IMG/VR virus record: IMGVR_UViG_3300006805_000085
Location: 1-34,128 of that record
Length of the DNA: 34,128 nucleotides
Source: a virus
Direction: 5' to 3' (one strand)
Position numbers and translations under genes: made by a program. This document shows, one piece after another, positions 16,978 through 33,936 of this stretch (within the stretch, counting starts at the first letter, position 1; every line of letters starts with the position of its first letter). Below the pieces are notes generated by a model. The model was not told where the DNA came from. It saw only the letters and a list, made by a program, of their open reading frames with translations, and made no database searches.

Positions 16978-17325
16978 GTGTTTGAATTACTAGCAGTCGC
17001 AGCGGCACCAGTGGTTACGTTTTCACTTGACCCATCGCTTGTCATCCAGCTCGTACTCAGTACGGTGATGCCATTGCTGGTCGGTATCGTGACTGATCGC
17101 GTGACATCGGGCGCGGTCAAAGCGTGGCTCTTGGCAGCGTTTACGCTCGCCACATCAGTGCTTACAGGCATCGGTGATGCAATAGCAAGCGGTACGTCAT
17201 TTGACCTTGGGCTTGCGCTCATACTGTTTATACCAGCCTTTGTGGTATCGGTATCGACATACTATGGATTGTGGAAACCAACAGGTATTGCAGTCAAAGC
17301 ACAAGACGTCGGCTCGAACAAATAA
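16978..17325 (+). CDS. Holin-like protein
   Basis: The 115-residue product (GTG start, GAGGAA upstream) has three hydrophobic segments at about 18-37 (LVIQLVLSTVMPLLVGIV), 46-66 (AVKAWLLAAFTLATSVLTGIG) and 77-98 (GLALILFIPAFVVSVSTYYGLW), then 'KPTGIAVKAQDVGSNK'. The ending GLWKPTG-x-x-x-K is common in holin-type proteins of actinophages. It would open the membrane for the endolysin coded just upstream. An intrinsic terminator follows the stop by 15 nt. The stop codon lies inside the 19-bp repeat at 17315-17333. Confidence 0.75.
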   Translation: MFELLAVAAAPVVTFSLDPSLVIQLVLSTVMPLLVGIVTDRVTSGAVKAWLLAAFTLATSVLTGIGDAIASGTSFDLGLALILFIPAFVVSVSTYYGLWKPTGIAVKAQDVGSNK

Positions 17326-17333
17326 CTTATTCA
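17315..17333 (+). repeat. 19-bp direct repeat, left copy
   Basis: CGAACAAATAACTTATTCA, identical to 20623-20641. The two copies flank the ParB-TerS-TerL cassette. This copy contains the holin stop codon and part of a 13-nt palindrome, CTTATT-C-AATAAG (17326-17338). Confidence 0.85.
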
Positions 17334-17339
17334 ATAAGC

Positions 17340-17371
17340 AAAAAGCCCCTCTCGCAGATTGGGGCTTTTTT
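17340..17371 (+). terminator. Intrinsic terminator after lysis genes
   Basis: AAAAAGCCCC (17340-17349) pairs with GGGGCTTTTT (17361-17370) around an 11-nt loop. The A-run on the left means it could also work leftward. Confidence 0.9.
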
Positions 17372-17421
17372 GATGCACTAATGTTTGTTTTGTTTTATTA
17401 GTAGGTCCAGTATAGCACAGA

Positions 17422-19076: not shown

Positions 19077-20530
19077 TGGCACGACGATACGGAAATCAAG
19101 ACCCACGCATCGACATTTACAATAATGGTGATATTGAACTTGCTGACAAAACGATCGAGCTTTGTGAGGCGTATGGTATCAAGCTGTTGCCTTGGCAAAG
19201 AAACATATTGTATCGATGGATGGCAACCGATGAGTTTGAGAAATGGGTAAACCCCGAGTGTGGTTTATCAGTGCCGCGCCAAAACGGAAAGTCTGAGCTG
19301 ATCATTGTACGCATCATCGGTGGTATGGTGTTTTTGGGTGAGGCGCTAGTCTATACCGCTCAATCTGATAACACCGTAAAAGAAATCAAACGTCGTGTCA
19401 TGCGCTTTTTCTATGATGCCGATGAAGAGTTGCGCGACATGCTTACTGATGAGTTTGATAACGAGCCAAAGTCACTAGACTATGTTGAATTGCGTAATCG
19501 TGGTCGATGCGTATTTCGTACCCGAACGCGTACAAACGGCTTGGGTAGCACCAACGACACATTGATCATCGATGAGGCGCAAGAAGAAACTGACGCCCAG
19601 CAAGAGGCTCTATTGCCAACGCTTGCATCTGGTAAAAGCCAAAACCACCAAACCATACGAGCAGGTACGCCGCCGACAGCTGGCTCGGCTGGTACCGTAT
19701 GGACGCGCACACGCAACAGCGTACTCACTGGCAAGGCTGAAAGCTATTGCTGGCAAGAATGGTCAGTCGAGGCGATTACCGACGTCACAGATGAAGAGTC
19801 GTGGTATTTCACAAACCCATCGCTTGGTTATTTCTTGATGATTAGTGCGGTCCGTAATGAGTCGGCAACGATGGCGACCGATAGCTTTAATAAAATGCGC
19901 CTAGGCTGGTATGCAGGTGTTGAGAGCTTGCGAGCGATTAGTGATGATCAATGGTTGCCGCTGGCTGTTGAGGGCGTGCAGGTGCCGCCAGAGCCAAATA
20001 TTGTGTATGCCATCAAGTTTGCACCCGATCGATCAGCCGTGTCGCTTGCGGTGGGTGTATTGATGCCAGATGCAAGAGTGCATGTCGAGATCATTGAACG
20101 CCGCCAAATGAACGCTGGTATATCATGGTTGTCGATGTGGCTTATAGAGCGCTGGCGCAAATGCAACAAAATCATTATCGATGGCGCGGCTGGTACACAA
20201 TTATTAGTCGAAGAGCTTACGCGGTCCGACCCAAAGATCAGCAAAAAGATATTGACGCCAAATGTGAAAGAGGCTGGCGCGGCATACTCATCATTTCAAA
20301 CAGCGATCGAGCAACGCTTACTCACACACTTTAATCAGCCAGCACTCAACGTGTCGGTAAAGACGGTGAAAAAGCGCGACATCGGGCGTGACGGCATGTT
20401 TGGGTATGCGGCAATGAATAACGACATCCAAAGTGACCCGACCGAGGCGGCAGCATTTGCGTATTATGGCGCTGTTCGATTTAAGAAAGACAAGTCAAAC
20501 GCTAGTAGTACACAGAGGATAATGTTATAG
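19076..20530 (+). CDS. terL: Terminase large subunit
   Basis: The 484-residue protein is a complete terminase motor. Walker A 'VPRQNGKS' is at 66-73, an adenine-binding 'LLPWQRNIL' region at 37-45, Walker B plus catalytic Glu 'LIIDEAQE' at 163-170. The C-terminal nuclease half shows 'YAIKFAPDRSAVSLAVG' with its first acidic residue, 'KIIIDGAAGTQLLVEEL' with the second, and 'NNDIQSDPTEAAAFAYYGAV' near the end. It couples ATP hydrolysis to DNA translocation into the head and cuts the concatemer. The PRQNGKS form of Walker A is characteristic of actinophage-type terminases. A terminator follows. Confidence 0.93.
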   Translation: MARRYGNQDPRIDIYNNGDIELADKTIELCEAYGIKLLPWQRNILYRWMATDEFEKWVNPECGLSVPRQNGKSELIIVRIIGGMVFLGEALVYTAQSDNTVKEIKRRVMRFFYDADEELRDMLTDEFDNEPKSLDYVELRNRGRCVFRTRTRTNGLGSTNDTLIIDEAQEETDAQQEALLPTLASGKSQNHQTIRAGTPPTAGSAGTVWTRTRNSVLTGKAESYCWQEWSVEAITDVTDEESWYFTNPSLGYFLMISAVRNESATMATDSFNKMRLGWYAGVESLRAISDDQWLPLAVEGVQVPPEPNIVYAIKFAPDRSAVSLAVGVLMPDARVHVEIIERRQMNAGISWLSMWLIERWRKCNKIIIDGAAGTQLLVEELTRSDPKISKKILTPNVKEAGAAYSSFQTAIEQRLLTHFNQPALNVSVKTVKKRDIGRDGMFGYAAMNNDIQSDPTEAAAFAYYGAVRFKKDKSNASSTQRIML

Positions 20531-27052: not shown

Positions 27053-27585
27053 GTGAATATCAAGAAACAGAAAAGTTGCTCGATGAGCTTATGGCTCTCG
27101 ATAACTATAAACTCACCAAGGCAATCGAAAATCTGACGAGCCGACAAATACAGCTCTTAAATTGGAAAATGCCATATCTTAATACCAAGGTCCGAATACT
27201 CACTAAGCAATTGAAAGCCGCCCACATCGAGCGCTCAACCAATTACGATAAGCTGATCAAAAAAGCACGCACAATGTTTTGCGATCTCGACATTGAAATA
27301 CTGGAGATGCTAAACAACGATGAGATGTCATGGTACGCACGCGGCATTGCTCGCCATGTGAACGGTGACAGCGACAAGTGGACTAAATACAGCCTCGACG
27401 CGGTGCGCAAGCGCTTACGACTCTTGAAACGCCGTGGGCTGGTCGAAGTGATCAGCGGCTTGATGGATGAAGAGGATGGCATGTTAGCTGGCTCTGGTTA
27501 CAGCGCTGTATACAAGCAACAAAGCAATATTGAAAAAATAATCGCTAGTTACAAAGGCGAAAACGACACAAAGGAATTACTATAA
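27049..27585 (+). CDS. Winged-helix early protein
   Basis: The 178-residue product has an N-terminal helical region, 'TKAIENLTSRQIQLLNWKMPYLNTKVRILTKQLKAAH', and from about 85 a winged-helix-like domain: 'LDIEILEMLNNDEMSWYARGIARHVNGDSDKWTKYSLDAVRKRLRLLKRRGLVEVISG', with the recognition helix followed by 'LKRRGLVEV' as the first strand of the wing. Its context, just upstream of a clamp-like gene, suggests a DNA-related role. Coupled both sides (ATGA, TAATG). Confidence 0.75.
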   Translation: MSEYQETEKLLDELMALDNYKLTKAIENLTSRQIQLLNWKMPYLNTKVRILTKQLKAAHIERSTNYDKLIKKARTMFCDLDIEILEMLNNDEMSWYARGIARHVNGDSDKWTKYSLDAVRKRLRLLKRRGLVEVISGLMDEEDGMLAGSGYSAVYKQQSNIEKIIASYKGENDTKELL

Positions 27586-28184
27586 TGTTGGTATCAAAAT
27601 CACTACTCTCAACAATTGCCACGGCAAGCAAAGACGACACACGACCATTGCTCACATGCATACGCGTTTACAAAGAGGATGACAAAATCGTATCTGTCGC
27701 CACTGACGGCTATATCTTATCAGAGGTCATCGAAAGCACACCAAACACCGATGAGTACCCAGAGTTACCATTTGTAAAAACTGATGATACGCCAGAGTCA
27801 ATACTCATACCAGCTGAAACGGCAAAAAAGATGATCGGCTCGATTAAAAAGAATGACAGTGGCTTGCCGATATTGAGTTATGCGCAGCTGACAAAAGATA
27901 CACTCGTCACCACCGATCTTGAGCAAACAACCGCGTTGCATTTCCGCTCACCAGAGGGCAATTACCCAGAGTACCGCAAGCTCGTCGAGTTGGATGAAGA
28001 GAAAGCGAAAACGTACAAAAAAGCAACTGTAAACCCGAAATATTTAAAGCAAGTGCTGGCTCTATTCAAGGATGATTACAGTGTTGAGTTGAGCATATCC
28101 GAAGATAAGTTTGCGCCAGTGTTCATACGGTCCGAAAGCAACGGTGTTAAAAAGATGGCAGTAATCATGACACTGAAAGGGTAA
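27585..28184 (+). CDS. Sliding-clamp-like protein, two-domain length
   Basis: The 199-residue protein resembles the bacterial beta clamp (DnaN). Residues about 17-50, 'KDDTRPLLTCIRVYKEDDKIVSVATDGYILSEV', follow the DnaN pattern RP-L--V----------ATDGY-L; 'FRSPEGNYPEYRKLV' (about 124-139) resembles the domain entry FP-YP-Y-------; and the end 'FAPVFIRSESNGVKKMAVIMTLKG' matches the DnaN C-terminus (kP-----------vlMP-r). It is only half the usual 365-380 residues, so probably two domains instead of three, a ring of three subunits as in PCNA being one possibility. No phage polymerase is seen in the window. Confidence 0.7.
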   Translation: MLVSKSLLSTIATASKDDTRPLLTCIRVYKEDDKIVSVATDGYILSEVIESTPNTDEYPELPFVKTDDTPESILIPAETAKKMIGSIKKNDSGLPILSYAQLTKDTLVTTDLEQTTALHFRSPEGNYPEYRKLVELDEEKAKTYKKATVNPKYLKQVLALFKDDYSVELSISEDKFAPVFIRSESNGVKKMAVIMTLKG

Positions 28185-29504: not shown

Positions 29505-29933
29505 ATGAAACAAGACGATTACGAAAAGTTATGGGGCAAAAAGACGATGCAGCAAGCATTGCAGGATGCCATCGCCAAAGCTCACACAGGGTACAGTTAC
29601 GCGAAACTGGTATCAATGGTCCAAGACGAAGAGAATGACGATGGGCTTGAGGCTGACGAGGTAAAAGACGTCGATAAGCTCACAAACCTCATTGGTCACA
29701 TGTTTGAATACTATGGAGTCAAGCGGCTCGGTGAGGGATTTGATAAGCTCGAGATGGCATCACAAATGTATATCGTCGGTGGCATCGTACATCGTTTTAC
29801 TGCTGGCTTGCCAGAGGGTGCAGGGTTTGCCGAGGTAAAGATGGAAAATAGCGACTGGCAAGCGCTACTGGTCCGTAAAGGCTCTGGTTATCAGCCCGAG
29901 GTCGATGCACTAATTAAAGCGACTGAGGAATAA
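29505..29933 (+). CDS. Early protein, unknown
   Basis: The 142-residue acidic product is largely helical (MQQALQDAIAKAHTGYSYAKLVSMVQDEEN; VKDVDKLTNLIGHMFEYYGVKRLGEGFDKLE), with 'MYIVGGIVHRFTAG' near residue 90 and a short beta part. No cysteines. Not recognised. Confidence 0.68.
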   Translation: MKQDDYEKLWGKKTMQQALQDAIAKAHTGYSYAKLVSMVQDEENDDGLEADEVKDVDKLTNLIGHMFEYYGVKRLGEGFDKLEMASQMYIVGGIVHRFTAGLPEGAGFAEVKMENSDWQALLVRKGSGYQPEVDALIKATEE

Positions 29934-29937
29934 CGAT

Positions 29938-30219
29938 ATGACCGAGGCGATTATCGTAATTGTTGCACTCGCATGGTCGGCTATGATGTATGTAATTGGT
30001 CAAGAGAATGGCGAGGCAAAAGCAATCAATCGTGATAACAAAAAGCCAGATACCGAGATCAAGCATTTCGATCGTACCCACTTTACAGGCATCACCATTG
30101 GTGGTCGCAAGTTTTTGTATTGCCCTGTCGGTAATATAATCAGCTGGTCAGAGGGCGATCACGATAACAAGTGGTGCCATTATGAGCAAAAATACTTTGA
30201 GGAGATTGCGCGATCATGA
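29938..30219 (+). CDS. Membrane-anchored early protein
   Basis: The 93-residue product begins with a membrane helix (EAIIVIVALAWSAMMYVIG, about 3-21) followed by a basic linker and a small domain with 'FLYCPVGNIISWSEGDHDNKWCHYE' containing two cysteines. A reverse orientation with the domain in the cytoplasm is more likely given the short N-terminus and the basic linker. Not recognised. Confidence 0.65.
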   Translation: MTEAIIVIVALAWSAMMYVIGQENGEAKAINRDNKKPDTEIKHFDRTHFTGITIGGRKFLYCPVGNIISWSEGDHDNKWCHYEQKYFEEIARS

Positions 30220-30485: not shown

Positions 30486-30874
30486 TGGGCGCACCGCAAA
30501 TAATCGATATTCAATACGATGGCAAAAGGCACTGGTTTAAAGTCTGGCGATACGCAACTGAACAAGATTTGTATTCAGCATTGCGCAGCGATCATATTAA
30601 AGTCGAAAACAATGACACTATCGCATACACCGATTGTTACCCAGCCGTCGTGAACGGTAAAGAAAACGAAGAGGCAGGGCGCATGTACTTTTTGGATAAG
30701 ACCGTCGATACGTTTGCTCACGAGGCGACGCACATGGCGCTTGGCATCATTGCGCGGCACGGTCACAAAAGTATCGTTGCAACAATTGACGAAGAGCCAG
30801 AGTTATCGCATGATTTGTGTTATCTGGTCGGTGTTATCACCTCAGAGTTGTATAGCAAGTCAAAAGCGTTCTAA
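30482..30874 (+). CDS. HEATH metallopeptidase-like protein
   Basis: The 130-residue protein carries 'DTFAHEATHMALGIIARHG' with H80-E81-x2-H84, the HExxH zinc motif, and a later acidic stretch 'IDEEPELSHDLCYLVG' that can supply the third ligand. Length and order fit small minimal gluzincin-type phage proteins. It would hydrolyse a protein, but no substrate is indicated. The start (ATG 30482 or 30485) follows GGAGG. Confidence 0.7.
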   Translation: MMGAPQIIDIQYDGKRHWFKVWRYATEQDLYSALRSDHIKVENNDTIAYTDCYPAVVNGKENEEAGRMYFLDKTVDTFAHEATHMALGIIARHGHKSIVATIDEEPELSHDLCYLVGVITSELYSKSKAF

Positions 30875-30910
30875 AAAGCTAATGTCGTAAAATATAAGAA
30901 AGGCAATATC

Positions 30911-31153
30911 ATGGCACGAAAGAAACAAATCACACTGATCAGCAAGAAAGTCGTTATTAAAATTGGTGAGGTCACAAAGTTGGAGGCTGGCAAAAGCTAT
31001 ATACTCAACGTACCCGACCATTTCGACTTTGAAGATCACCAAGCGTTGCAAGCTGAGTTTAACAAACGCGGTATCACTGATGTCATTGTCGTATGTTCAA
31101 ACAGCATGACGGTATATGAGGTACCAGAAAAAGTGACGGCTGATATAGAATAA
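30911..31153 (+). CDS. Small early protein, last of rightward run
   Basis: The 80-residue product is beta/alpha: 'QITLISKKVVIKIGEVTKLEAGKSYILNVPDHFDFEDHQALQAEFNKRGITDVIVVCSNSMTVYEVPE'. The gene is separated from the run by 36 nt and may have its own weak -10 (TAAAAT, 30888-30893), with AAAGG before the ATG. Its end overlaps the promoter of the candidate ncRNA. Not recognised. Confidence 0.7.
   Translation: MARKKQITLISKKVVIKIGEVTKLEAGKSYILNVPDHFDFEDHQALQAEFNKRGITDVIVVCSNSMTVYEVPEKVTADIE
31141..31149 (+). promoter_or_regulatory. Extended -10 promoter for candidate ncRNA
   Basis: TGA-TATAGA, in the last codons of the upstream gene. Transcription would start near 31156-31159, where the first predicted helix begins. 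Confidence 0.45.
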
Positions 31154-31157
31154 AATT

Positions 31158-31276
31158 GGTGCGGCACTCGACAGTGGTGGCGAGTAATGAAGAAATAGGT
31201 ATCAAGCCTGTCGCACTATCATAGAGATGAGAGCCTTTATGGATGTGGAGAGCGCCCCAGAAATGGGGCGTTTTAT
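31158..31276 (+). ncRNA. Candidate structured RNA with own terminator
   Basis: The stretch is non-coding and folds by inspection throughout. P1: GTGCGGC (31159-31165) with GTCGCAC (31210-31216), 7 bp with one G-U. Inside, P2: ACTCG (31166-31170) with CGAGT (31181-31185). P3: AGG (31197-31199) with CCT (31207-31209). This is a three-way junction with an 11-nt A-rich joint. Next a hairpin CATAGAG (31220-31226) with CTTTATG (31235-31241), then the terminator at 31253-31270. A promoter fits the 5' end. It could be a small regulatory RNA or a riboregulator. No known class recognised. Confidence 0.45.
31253..31276 (+). terminator. Intrinsic terminator, end of rightward genes
   Basis: CGCCCCA (31253-31259), GAAA loop, TGGGGCG (31264-31270), then TTTTAT. 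It faces the end of the leftward operon and separates the two. Confidence 0.88.
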
Positions 31277-31911
31277 ATTTCAGTTATTTGCTTGGTCCAG
31301 TCGACATCAGTGGCAATCATATTGCGTGCCACACGGCGACCTTGCGGTAAATCAGTGCGCCCCTCGATCAATGAGCCTATATCGTCATCATGGTCGACGA
31401 GTGATGGGTTTGTATATAGCACTCGCATCATATTGCCAAAATAAAACTTACCGATGCGCGTGTCGTATGGGTCCTCATCAGTATCACAAAACTCGAGCAA
31501 TGGCTCTATGTGGTCAGTCGGCAATGCGATGGCAACGCCCCAAAATAACAAGTAACCACTCAACCATGAGCCATCTTTTGCTGTTGCAACGGCTTTAGTC
31601 ACTCGATCATTGAATGGTCGAACAGTACCAGTGTAAAGCGATACACAGGTCCGTAATGGTGCCGCTGTCAATGCTTTCTCAAGGTTAGTGAAAAAGTATT
31701 CATTGATTATTGCATCATCTTGTAGTACGACATGCACATCAGCCTTGCCGATGCCATAAGCAAGCGCCCGACGACCAGTGTGCCACTCGCTATTTTGTTG
31801 GTCCCAAATGATATGTGGCGAAACAAATGGATATTGAGCAACTTTATTGTACAGAGCGACCGCTTGTACGGTCCGATCAGGATGCGCCATTATTGCGATT
31901 GATATTTTCAT
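31273..31911 (-). CDS. Glycosyltransferase, GT-A-like
   Basis: The 212-residue protein has the features of phage-type GT-A glycosyltransferases: N-terminal 'MKISIAIMAHPDRTVQAVAL', the nucleotide-sugar/metal motif 'HVVLQDDA' (D65, D66), and the late 'PSLVDHDDDIGSL ... GRRVARNMIA' (LVDH 171-174, GRR 191-193), a pattern I associate with actinophage glycosyltransferases. It overlaps the pyruvyl transferase gene by 4 nt and is last in the leftward operon. Acceptor unknown: virion glycan, host surface or other. Confidence 0.8.
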   Translation of the reverse strand: MKISIAIMAHPDRTVQAVALYNKVAQYPFVSPHIIWDQQNSEWHTGRRALAYGIGKADVHVVLQDDAIINEYFFTNLEKALTAAPLRTCVSLYTGTVRPFNDRVTKAVATAKDGSWLSGYLLFWGVAIALPTDHIEPLLEFCDTDEDPYDTRIGKFYFGNMMRVLYTNPSLVDHDDDIGSLIEGRTDLPQGRRVARNMIATDVDWTKQITEI

Positions 31912-32585
31912 AACTTGCCTATTGCCTCGAGCAAATCATCTTGTATCTCATTAAGCGGTTTCACAAAGGCTGTTTTGTAGTCCATCCATTTCCAGTTGCC
32001 ACTAATGACGTCATCTCGAGCAATGCGCATATTTGGTATGCCATACGAGTCGGCTATGATTAAACCGTGCAATGAGCTTGAGAGAATGACCCGACAGCTC
32101 GATATTTTCTTTATGACCGTTTCTGGTGGCTCTGTTGCGTCGATTACGATGTCGGCGAATGGGTAGTCATCTTTGTCGACATAATGCCGTACAACGCCGA
32201 TATTATAGCGTGCTGGTGCCTTGGTCCATATTCTCGGTGCCAATAAACCAATATCACCCAATACCGCATTGCTTTTGAGGTTGTTTTGTGTAAGCTGACC
32301 TCTCACAGCAAGTGTATAAAAATTGTGTTCACTATCATGGGTATAGCCAGAGCCAGCACCCAATACAGTGACATCTTTGTTTTGTGTTTCTGCTATATCG
32401 AGTATAGTGCCGATTATCACAACGTCGGCTTTGGATAATGCCACACGGCGCACTTTATAACCCAGCTTGGTCAATATAAGCGCACCCAGCTCATCACCAA
32501 AGTTATATGGCTTTTTGTTGGTACGCCACCACCATGCATTGATCGTTTTATTTGTGTCTGAACCAAGCATCAGTAACCGCCTCAT
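31908..32585 (-). CDS. Polysaccharide pyruvyl transferase-like
   Basis: The 225-residue protein matches the polysaccharide pyruvyl transferase family, which adds ketal-linked pyruvate from phosphoenolpyruvate to a sugar. It shows 'NFGDELGALILTKLGY' (28-43), 'AVRGQLTQ' (93-100), 'AVLGDIGLLAP' (107-117) and the C-terminal signature 'SSSLHGLIIADSYGIPN' (169-185). It is shorter than the 300-380 of bacterial homologues but contains the main blocks. The start overlaps the first gene of the operon by 38 nt. A pyruvyl group would add negative charge to a glycan. Confidence 0.85.
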   Translation of the reverse strand: MRRLLMLGSDTNKTINAWWWRTNKKPYNFGDELGALILTKLGYKVRRVALSKADVVIIGTILDIAETQNKDVTVLGAGSGYTHDSEHNFYTLAVRGQLTQNNLKSNAVLGDIGLLAPRIWTKAPARYNIGVVRHYVDKDDYPFADIVIDATEPPETVIKKISSCRVILSSSLHGLIIADSYGIPNMRIARDDVISGNWKWMDYKTAFVKPLNEIQDDLLEAIGKL

Positions 32586-33936
32586 ATTTCTTAAATAGTG
32601 ATGTTATGTGGCGCCCATATTCAACGCGGTCGGCATATTTGGTATGCAATAGCTTATTGAATATACCCATCTCAGTAAGGTCTTGCGGTCGCTCAAAGTG
32701 GTACTCGTACATGTCTTTGCATAGGTCCATAACGATACGACGATCACCACCAACGACGCCGCAATTGAGTAATGGCTTGGCGCCATTCTCTCTCAAGTAT
32801 CGATTAACCGACGGCTCAAGGTGCCGTGTGAGCATCCATTGATGATTGATTGTTAGCCTTGGCTCATCGCCGACATATAGCCTGTTTGGTTTGATGTGAG
32901 TAAATGGATTGTTCACCATGTCGACATCAGTGGCATCGACAACAAACACATTGGCTATCTCGGGATGGTCACGCAAGTATTGCCACTCTTTGAGCCAGCG
33001 CTCAAAGTACGGTGTAGTTGATATGGTGACGCGGTTTGGTGCATCGAAACAGTTGTGTATTAGTACGAACTCATAGCCCTTTGACTCAACAGATTGCTTG
33101 AGCTTATCGATTTCTTTTTCATTGGCAAACCACGCTTGATTGCGTTGTGGGTCCATCACATTAGCAAAGTAACAGGCTATGACGACATCCTTGCCATACG
33201 GTGCATACTCGGTCGAGTCAGCACGCTCTTTAAGCAATGCATGGTTTCTCACGATGCCATCAGTGCGATCGGCTTGCGATATGCTACTCGATACCTCTTG
33301 GTGTTGGTCCATGCTATGGATAAGCAAATCACTATCGATAACGTCCATATGTTTGAATGTAGTAAGCCCAGCATTGTGAATACGGTTTGACCAATCACCA
33401 TGCTCATCCATTGCCTTGCCGAACTGTACCGCCATACCACCCACAACGTCGAGTACGTCGTGCTTGATGTACAACATACAGCCCCTCGCATGGCTATGAG
33501 CAACGTGCTTGTTATCGGTGTATATGATGTCATCATCGCCCACTGGTGTACCATTAGCCCAATCTTTAAAGCAGTACATCAAGTGGCTCTCACTACTCTC
33601 AACGTATGGCACCCACCAGTTGGCAGCAATAGGGTATGTATCGTCATCAAATAGAAAGATATGGTCACAATCGGCAAGCAACTCAAGACATTTGTTTTTG
33701 GCGCGAGCAATGCCGACATTGTTATCAAAGCGGTACACATCACCCTCGATGTTTACTGGTGTCTTGCTGGCATCGTCGACCACCACGATCTTTGCATCGG
33801 GTGTCAGTGATGCTATCTTTGCATAGGTTTCAGCCGCCAGTTGGTTGCGGTTATGGGTAGTAATGCCAATGCCTATTGAAAAGTTTTTATTTTTTGTTTG
33901 TTCAACATAGCGAGCGCCATTGATTACAACATGCAT
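32548..33936 (-). CDS. Two-domain glycosyltransferase
   Basis: The 462-residue protein joins two domains. Residues about 20-235 are a GT2-type domain: 'IGIGITTHNRNQLA' (21-34), 'IVVVDDAS' (50-57), 'NVGIARAKN' (73-81) and the DxD-like 'FDDD' (96-99). Residues about 249-462 look like a second GT-A domain: 'VVIACYFANVMDPQRNQAW', 'VFVVDATDVDM' with a DxD-type motif (334-339), and 'PLLNCGVVGGDRRIVMDLC'. It could add two sugars in turn. It leads the leftward operon with a promoter at 33970-33978 and the ribosome site AAACGAAATGGAG, shared with early genes, so it is well fitted to this phage. Confidence 0.85.
   Translation of the reverse strand: MHVVINGARYVEQTKNKNFSIGIGITTHNRNQLAAETYAKIASLTPDAKIVVVDDASKTPVNIEGDVYRFDNNVGIARAKNKCLELLADCDHIFLFDDDTYPIAANWWVPYVESSESHLMYCFKDWANGTPVGDDDIIYTDNKHVAHSHARGCMLYIKHDVLDVVGGMAVQFGKAMDEHGDWSNRIHNAGLTTFKHMDVIDSDLLIHSMDQHQEVSSSISQADRTDGIVRNHALLKERADSTEYAPYGKDVVIACYFANVMDPQRNQAWFANEKEIDKLKQSVESKGYEFVLIHNCFDAPNRVTISTTPYFERWLKEWQYLRDHPEIANVFVVDATDVDMVNNPFTHIKPNRLYVGDEPRLTINHQWMLTRHLEPSVNRYLRENGAKPLLNCGVVGGDRRIVMDLCKDMYEYHFERPQDLTEMGIFNKLLHTKYADRVEYGRHITSLFKKYEAVTDAWFRHK

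What the first reader, a model, noticed from the sequence alone, without database searches (positions are those of the whole stretch)
31141..31276. Free-standing structured RNA at the end of the rightward genes
The 118-nt stretch between the last rightward gene and the leftward operon is filled with helices: a three-way junction closed by 7 bp (31159-31165 with 31210-31216), a second 7-bp hairpin and a terminator. An extended -10 sits where transcription would start at the base of P1. It has no coding potential of note. Such a unit would suit a phage small RNA, an RNA decoy or a riboregulator. It matches no class I know.
Basis: partly seen in the sequence, partly recalled or inferred. Interest (0 to 1): 0.65.

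Follow-up and report, generated by a model that had tools for sequence, protein, structure and literature searches.

The report
Small structured RNA in uncultured phages
Between two converging gene blocks, this phage carries a small folded RNA with its own promoter-like site and terminator; related phages keep the fold at the same place while its letters change, so it is a real RNA gene, matching no family in Rfam, whose job is still unknown.

Summary
Window 31159-31276 folds as described: a three-way junction closed by 31159-31165/31210-31216, a hairpin at 31220-31241, and an intrinsic terminator (z -4.7; 0 of 200 shuffles fold as well). Two window-type homologues (L002, L005) keep the fold with changes on both sides of 4 pairs in P1, P2 and P3; the linking strand AAUGAAGAAAU is invariant. 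Eleven more distinct members sit in the same setting, at the end of the rightward genes. They have a different first domain but the same layout: -10-like TANAAT, P1-closed domain, UGAG-loop hairpin, terminator. P1 pairs in 87 of 89 positions over 14 loci despite divergent sequence. Of 19 clade records, 15 have the whole unit and 2 the hairpin plus terminator only. Nothing matches in Rfam, the phage or plasmid collections, or (by exact pattern) 84,980 prokaryote genomes. Best read: a free-standing phage small RNA gene. Transcription is inferred, not shown. Mechanism is open: I lean to a protein-binding or decoy RNA rather than an antisense RNA or riboswitch. The link between the window type and the other types rests on place and layout, not sequence.

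The parts
31146..31151 (+). -10-like hexamer TAGAAT, 7 nt upstream of P1
   Evidence: TANAAT lies 2-8 nt upstream of P1 in 11 of 14 loci; the 8-mer GTANAATA is there in 9 of 14, against 0.155 per kb per strand in these loci
31159..31216 (+). Domain 1: three-way junction closed by P1 (31159-31165 with 31210-31216)
   Evidence: fold; covariation among window-type homologues; P1 pairs in 87 of 89 positions over 14 loci
31166..31185 (+). P2 hairpin (31166-31170 with 31181-31185), loop holding GUGG at 31174-31177
   Evidence: changes on both sides at 2 pairs among 3 sequences; all cells paired
31186..31196 (+). Joining strand AAUGAAGAAAU, invariant in the three window-type members
   Evidence: alignments
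31197..31209 (+). P3 hairpin, AGGU-AUCAA-GCCU
   Evidence: outer pair A-U / U-A compensated
31220..31241 (+). Domain 2: hairpin with UGAG in the loop; 3' strand GAGAGCCUUUAUGG invariant in window-type members
   Evidence: UGAG-loop hairpin at the same place in the other loci
31253..31274 (+). Intrinsic terminator: 7-bp core stem, GAAA loop, U tract; overlaps the stop codon of the leftward gene
   Evidence: stems differ in sequence but still pair in homologues
30911..31153 (+). Preceding rightward gene (80 aa), no Pfam match; a 30%-identical homologue precedes the RNA in L003
31273..31911 (-). Facing leftward gene: glucosyltransferase-like (phrog_854); context, not part of the RNA

Best explanation
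It is a small non-coding RNA gene of about 115 nt belonging to a clade of uncultured siphoviruses. It is probably transcribed from its own -10-type promoter at the end of the rightward gene block and ends at an intrinsic terminator. Shown by sequence comparison: a conserved multi-helix domain, a hairpin with a UGAG loop and a terminator, kept as a unit at one genomic place while helices change by compensation. Inferred: that it is made as a separate transcript starting near 31158. Proposed mechanism, inference only: it acts in trans as a folded RNA that binds a host or phage protein, as a decoy or as part of an RNA-protein particle. The single strands and loops are the conserved parts, the helices are free to change, and no pairing target was found.
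For: Fold far better than shuffles. Three window-type members (R1 scores 97-105 bits): 95.7% of cells paired, 4 pairs with changes on both sides, covariation score reached by 1 of 500 shuffles and falling from 0.42 to 0.19 or less when partners are slid. Same architecture in the same setting in 15 of 19 clade records, hairpin plus terminator in 2 more. Three members (G003, G022, G023) were found by a model that did not include them, E 4.5e-14 to 5.9e-12. P1 pairs in 87 of 89 positions over 14 loci; with segments set by rule, own partners pair better than swapped ones, 545 of 200,000 permutations as good. Conserved -10-like element next to P1 in 11 of 14. Not tied to one downstream gene: in L005 two rightward genes follow it, and in G003 it lies about 5.6 kb from the glycosyltransferase operon.
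Against: No transcript data exist. The upstream gene often ends within the -10-like element, so part of that conservation could be a stop codon. In most loci the RNA could equally be the 3' end of the upstream mRNA. The window-type first domain is not found by its own model in the other loci, and model R2 (hairpin plus terminator) does not hit the window's own copy, so common descent of the two types rests on place and layout. No partner protein was identified, so the mechanism is a preference by elimination.
Confidence: 0.5

Rival explanations
1. It is the structured 3' end of the rightward operon: the helices protect the mRNA from 3' exonucleases and the terminator insulates two converging operons. 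It has no separate transcript and no action in trans.
For: It follows directly on the last rightward gene in most loci, in the same strand, and ends in a terminator near the end of the leftward operon. Two members keep only the hairpin plus terminator.
Against: A plain stabiliser would not need an invariant joining strand or loop sequences (AAUGAAGAAAU; UUAAUA..GUUCAAUG in the other type). A -10-like element is held next to P1 across mostly unrelated upstream genes. In L203 a perfect TATAAT starts just before the hairpin.
Confidence: 0.27
2. It is a trans-acting antisense small RNA that pairs with phage or host mRNAs through its loops or joining strands.
For: Size, own terminator and unpaired conserved segments fit a bacterial small regulatory RNA.
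Against: The best predicted duplex with the phage's own start regions is no better than for shuffled RNA (14 of 100 as good). The conserved strand differs between the types, which would require different targets. Host targets could not be tested because the host is unknown.
Confidence: 0.13
3. It is a cis-acting switch or an antitermination site (as in the lambda pR'-6S arrangement) controlling transcription beyond the terminator.
For: Promoter-like site, short structured RNA, terminator is the right order of parts.
Against: In the window the DNA beyond the terminator is the leftward operon, so read-through would be antisense to it for 2.7 kb. The next gene differs between members. No Rfam riboswitch match.
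Confidence: 0.05
4. It is a relic of tRNA capture or of an attachment site.
For: In L201 the same place holds a tRNA-like acceptor stem, canonical T arm and CCA.
Against: Only one member looks tRNA-like, and ARAGORN finds no tRNA in any. Only one of 19 records has a tyrosine integrase, and the window has none. The helices are under selection.
Confidence: 0.03

Closest known systems
Phage-encoded small non-coding RNAs in general (for example the lambda pR' 6S leader RNA; recalled, not tested)
   Same: Short, structured, phage-encoded, promoter-like site upstream, intrinsic terminator
   Different: No sequence or covariance-model match to any Rfam family; not upstream of a late operon on the same strand in the window
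Bacterial Y RNAs / YrlA (tRNA-mimicking RNAs bound by Ro/Rsr; recalled from own knowledge)
   Same: End-closing helix and an internal multi-helix domain; one member (L201) mimics the T arm and acceptor of tRNA
   Different: No YrlA or other Rfam hit; no Ro/TROVE protein in 17 clade records
tRNA
   Same: L201 only: 7-bp acceptor, T arm CUGGGUUCAAUUCCCAG, ACCA
   Different: D and anticodon arms not canonical; ARAGORN negative everywhere; the window copy has no T arm
Large ornate RNAs such as GOLLD (title and abstract seen only, PMC12286853)
   Same: Structured non-coding bacterial RNA; phage link of GOLLD is from own knowledge
   Different: Those are described as giant; this one is about 115 nt and does not match any Rfam model

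Membership tests
Any Rfam 15 family (4227 models) | covariance-model score at or above the gathering threshold | tested here: not met
   0 matches in the window and in 7 related loci; permissive scans of window, L002, L201 and L211 gave only sub-threshold hits
Structured non-coding RNA (as a kind) | conserved secondary structure supported by compensatory changes | tested here: met
   4 pairs with changes on both sides, slid controls collapse; P1 in 14 loci
Free-standing small RNA gene | own promoter | tested here: inconclusive
   -10-like TANAAT next to P1 in 11 of 14 loci; no -35 was established and no transcript data are available; the window promoter scan did not list it
Free-standing small RNA gene | intrinsic terminator at the 3' end | tested here: met
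   hairpin plus U tract in the window and homologues with differing stems
Free-standing small RNA gene | discrete transcript | not testable with these tools
   no RNA data
Y RNA / YrlA | match to the family model and a Ro (TROVE) protein partner | tested here: not met
   no Rfam hit; PF05731 absent in 17 records, although a host Ro protein cannot be excluded
tRNA or tmRNA | canonical cloverleaf or tmRNA fold | tested here: not met
   ARAGORN finds none in 18 sources including the window and L201
Riboswitch / cis-regulatory leader | same class of regulated gene directly downstream | tested here: not met
   downstream context differs: leftward operon in the window, rightward genes in L005, distant from the operon in G003
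Antisense small RNA | significant complementarity to a target's start region | tested here: inconclusive
   no phage target better than shuffles; host mRNAs untested

The most novel reading that the evidence does not exclude
The locus is a cassette: a constant 3' platform (UGAG-loop hairpin plus terminator) and promoter that carries exchangeable folded RNA domains, one of them a tRNA mimic, used by these phages as RNA decoys or inhibitors against changing host defences.
Probability: 0.13. Interest if true: 0.82.

Novelty: new variant of a known kind. Interest (0 to 1): 0.58.

Why it matters
Small structured RNAs are rarely annotated in uncultured phages. Here one RNA locus is retained in about nine of ten members of a phage clade, which argues for a function the phage needs, yet it belongs to no catalogued family. 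Its domain 1 comes in several unrelated-looking forms on one constant frame, including one tRNA-like form, which gives a concrete, testable system for RNA-based host takeover or counter-defence.

Tried and rejected
A coding explanation: the 123-aa frame at 31227 is antisense to the leftward gene, and no frame is shared across homologues. A weak R1 hit in G007 at 19302-19395 (16.3 bits) lies inside tail genes and was rejected. Exact-pattern hits at 13 places in a collection of 84,980 species were scored with R1; none is convincing (best E 0.05). A possible repeated promoter word TGTCGTAAAATAT is not enriched in the window. Antisense targets within the phage: not significant. Low-scoring R2 hits (about 20-30 bits) in phages and bacteria look mostly like ordinary terminators, so R2 below about 50 bits was not used as evidence. 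Pattern search for the other type's core in 398 genomes of the phylum of a Leuconostoc locus found none (one search repeated largely the same set). No host could be assigned. My first P1 permutation runs had registration errors for L058 and L003; they were corrected. Literature searches found no description of this RNA, in an open-licence library only.

Full report
Observation. The RNA folds at -46.9 kcal/mol against -30.6 +/- 3.5 for dinucleotide shuffles (z -4.7, 0 of 200). P1 closes a three-way junction (P2 31166-31185, P3 31197-31209). A second hairpin occupies 31220-31241, and a terminator stem with GAAA loop and U tract ends at 31274, overlapping the stop codon of the leftward gene. The window is a 34-kb siphovirus record: major head protein, portal, terminase, tape measure and endolysin are recognised. 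The facing leftward operon is a glucosyltransferase-like protein, a polysaccharide pyruvyl transferase and a family-2 glycosyltransferase.

Window-type homologues. Protein and pattern scans of IMG/VR found two more copies: L002 (operon proteins 84-95% identical) and L005 (46-62%). In all three the strand AAUGAAGAAAU, the loop word GUGG and the strand GAGAGCCUUUAUGG are unchanged, while the helices change. P2 has two pairs with changes on both sides, P3 one, P1 one. In all, 95.7% of cells pair, the covariation score is reached by 1 of 500 shuffles, and sliding partners by 1-3 columns drops pairing to 36-49%. The second hairpin (31220-31241) is kept in all three but shows only one-sided changes and two broken cells, so covariation support for it is weaker than for P1-P3.

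The wider clade. A scan with the family of the adjacent 212-aa protein brought related phages. Between the rightward genes and the leftward operon, L003, L058, L059, L201, L204, L205, L207 and L211 hold the same order of parts: a -10-like hexamer, a domain closed by a 6-7 bp helix, a hairpin ACUACAU-GUGAG-GUGUAGU or a covarying version, and a terminator. A model of hairpin plus terminator (R2) run over whole records found three further complete members that were not in the model: G003 (E 4.5e-14), G023 (2.6e-12) and G022 (5.9e-12). Of 19 clade records 15 have the full unit (two of them, G024 and G025, carry the same RNA sequence). G006 and G018 have hairpin plus terminator only. G017, a 12-kb fragment, and G026 have none.

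P1 as a test. Over 14 loci P1 pairs in 87 of 89 positions although almost every column varies. Those helices were picked by eye, so I also set segments by rule (22 nt after the -10 hexamer; 24 nt before the hairpin) and compared own with swapped partners over 11 loci: 545 of 200,000 permutations did as well. This supports the closing helix; relatedness among loci is not modelled.

Promoter. TANAAT lies 2-8 nt upstream of P1 in 11 of 14 loci; the longer word GTANAATA is there in 9, where its density in these loci (0.155 per kb per strand) predicts far fewer than one. Upstream genes are mostly unrelated between members. In several loci the previous gene's stop codon overlaps this word, which weakens the argument, but L201 has TATAAT without needing it. 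No -35 was established. So transcription from a site at the base of P1 is likely but inferred.

The two types. Six of the newer members share a core GGUGCG - P2 - UUAAUA(n)GUUCAAUG - P3 - CAGC - P1', absent from the other loci fetched. L059 and L233 carry GUUCAAUGG followed by a short hairpin. L201 is tRNA-like (acceptor, T arm, CCA) but not a tRNA by ARAGORN. The window-type model does not hit any of these, and R2 does not hit the window's own copy. I therefore treat common descent of the types as likely from place and layout but not shown by sequence.

What it is not. Rfam has nothing at gathering threshold in the window or related loci, and permissive scans gave only sub-threshold hits. Phage and plasmid collections have no match to the RNA, and an exact pattern scan of 84,980 bacterial and archaeal species found no convincing copy. 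No TROVE protein accompanies it. It does not precede one fixed gene, so a riboswitch is unlikely.

Mechanism. Shown: selection on RNA structure and on unpaired strands, and a fixed genomic setting. Inferred: a separate transcript. Preferred by elimination: action in trans by binding a protein, either as decoy or as part of a particle. The main rival is a structured 3' end of the rightward mRNA with an insulating terminator. An antisense role found no support among phage start sites, but host targets are untested because the host is unknown.

Novelty. It is a small phage RNA, which is a known kind; the family itself appears uncatalogued, and the constant-3'-end, variable-domain layout is a variant I did not find described (open-licence papers only).

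Noticed in passing
L201 3109-3250 (-): The RNA's first domain is tRNA-like: 7-bp acceptor GGGCGCG/CGCGUCC, canonical T arm CUGGGUUCAAUUCCCAG and ACCA, with non-canonical D and anticodon arms; possible capture of a tRNA end.
   Followed up: partly
window 31273-33936 (-): Leftward operon of a glucosyltransferase-like protein (phrog_854), a polysaccharide pyruvyl transferase and a family-2 glycosyltransferase whose relatives (about 42% identical) occur in many contigs of about 53-61 kb; probable virion or surface glycosylation genes.
   Followed up: partly
window 17315-17372 (+) and L242: A terminator AAAAGCCCCTCTCGC..GGGGCTTTTTT after the gene at 16978-17325 is almost identical in G001 and similar in G007 and G018.
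   Followed up: no
window 30874-30911, L058 and L005 upstream of the RNA: The word GTCGTAAAATAT or CGTAAAATATAA recurs: directly upstream of the RNA in L058 and L005, but one gene earlier in the window, as if an 80-aa gene had been inserted between promoter and RNA.
   Followed up: partly
window 27585-28184 (+): A 199-aa protein matches the central domain of the DNA polymerase III beta clamp (PF02767, E 1.4e-6), a short phage-encoded clamp-like protein.
   Followed up: no
G018 29676-30203 (-), locus L225: The only tyrosine integrase among 19 clade records; that record also has only the short form (hairpin plus terminator) of the RNA.
   Followed up: no
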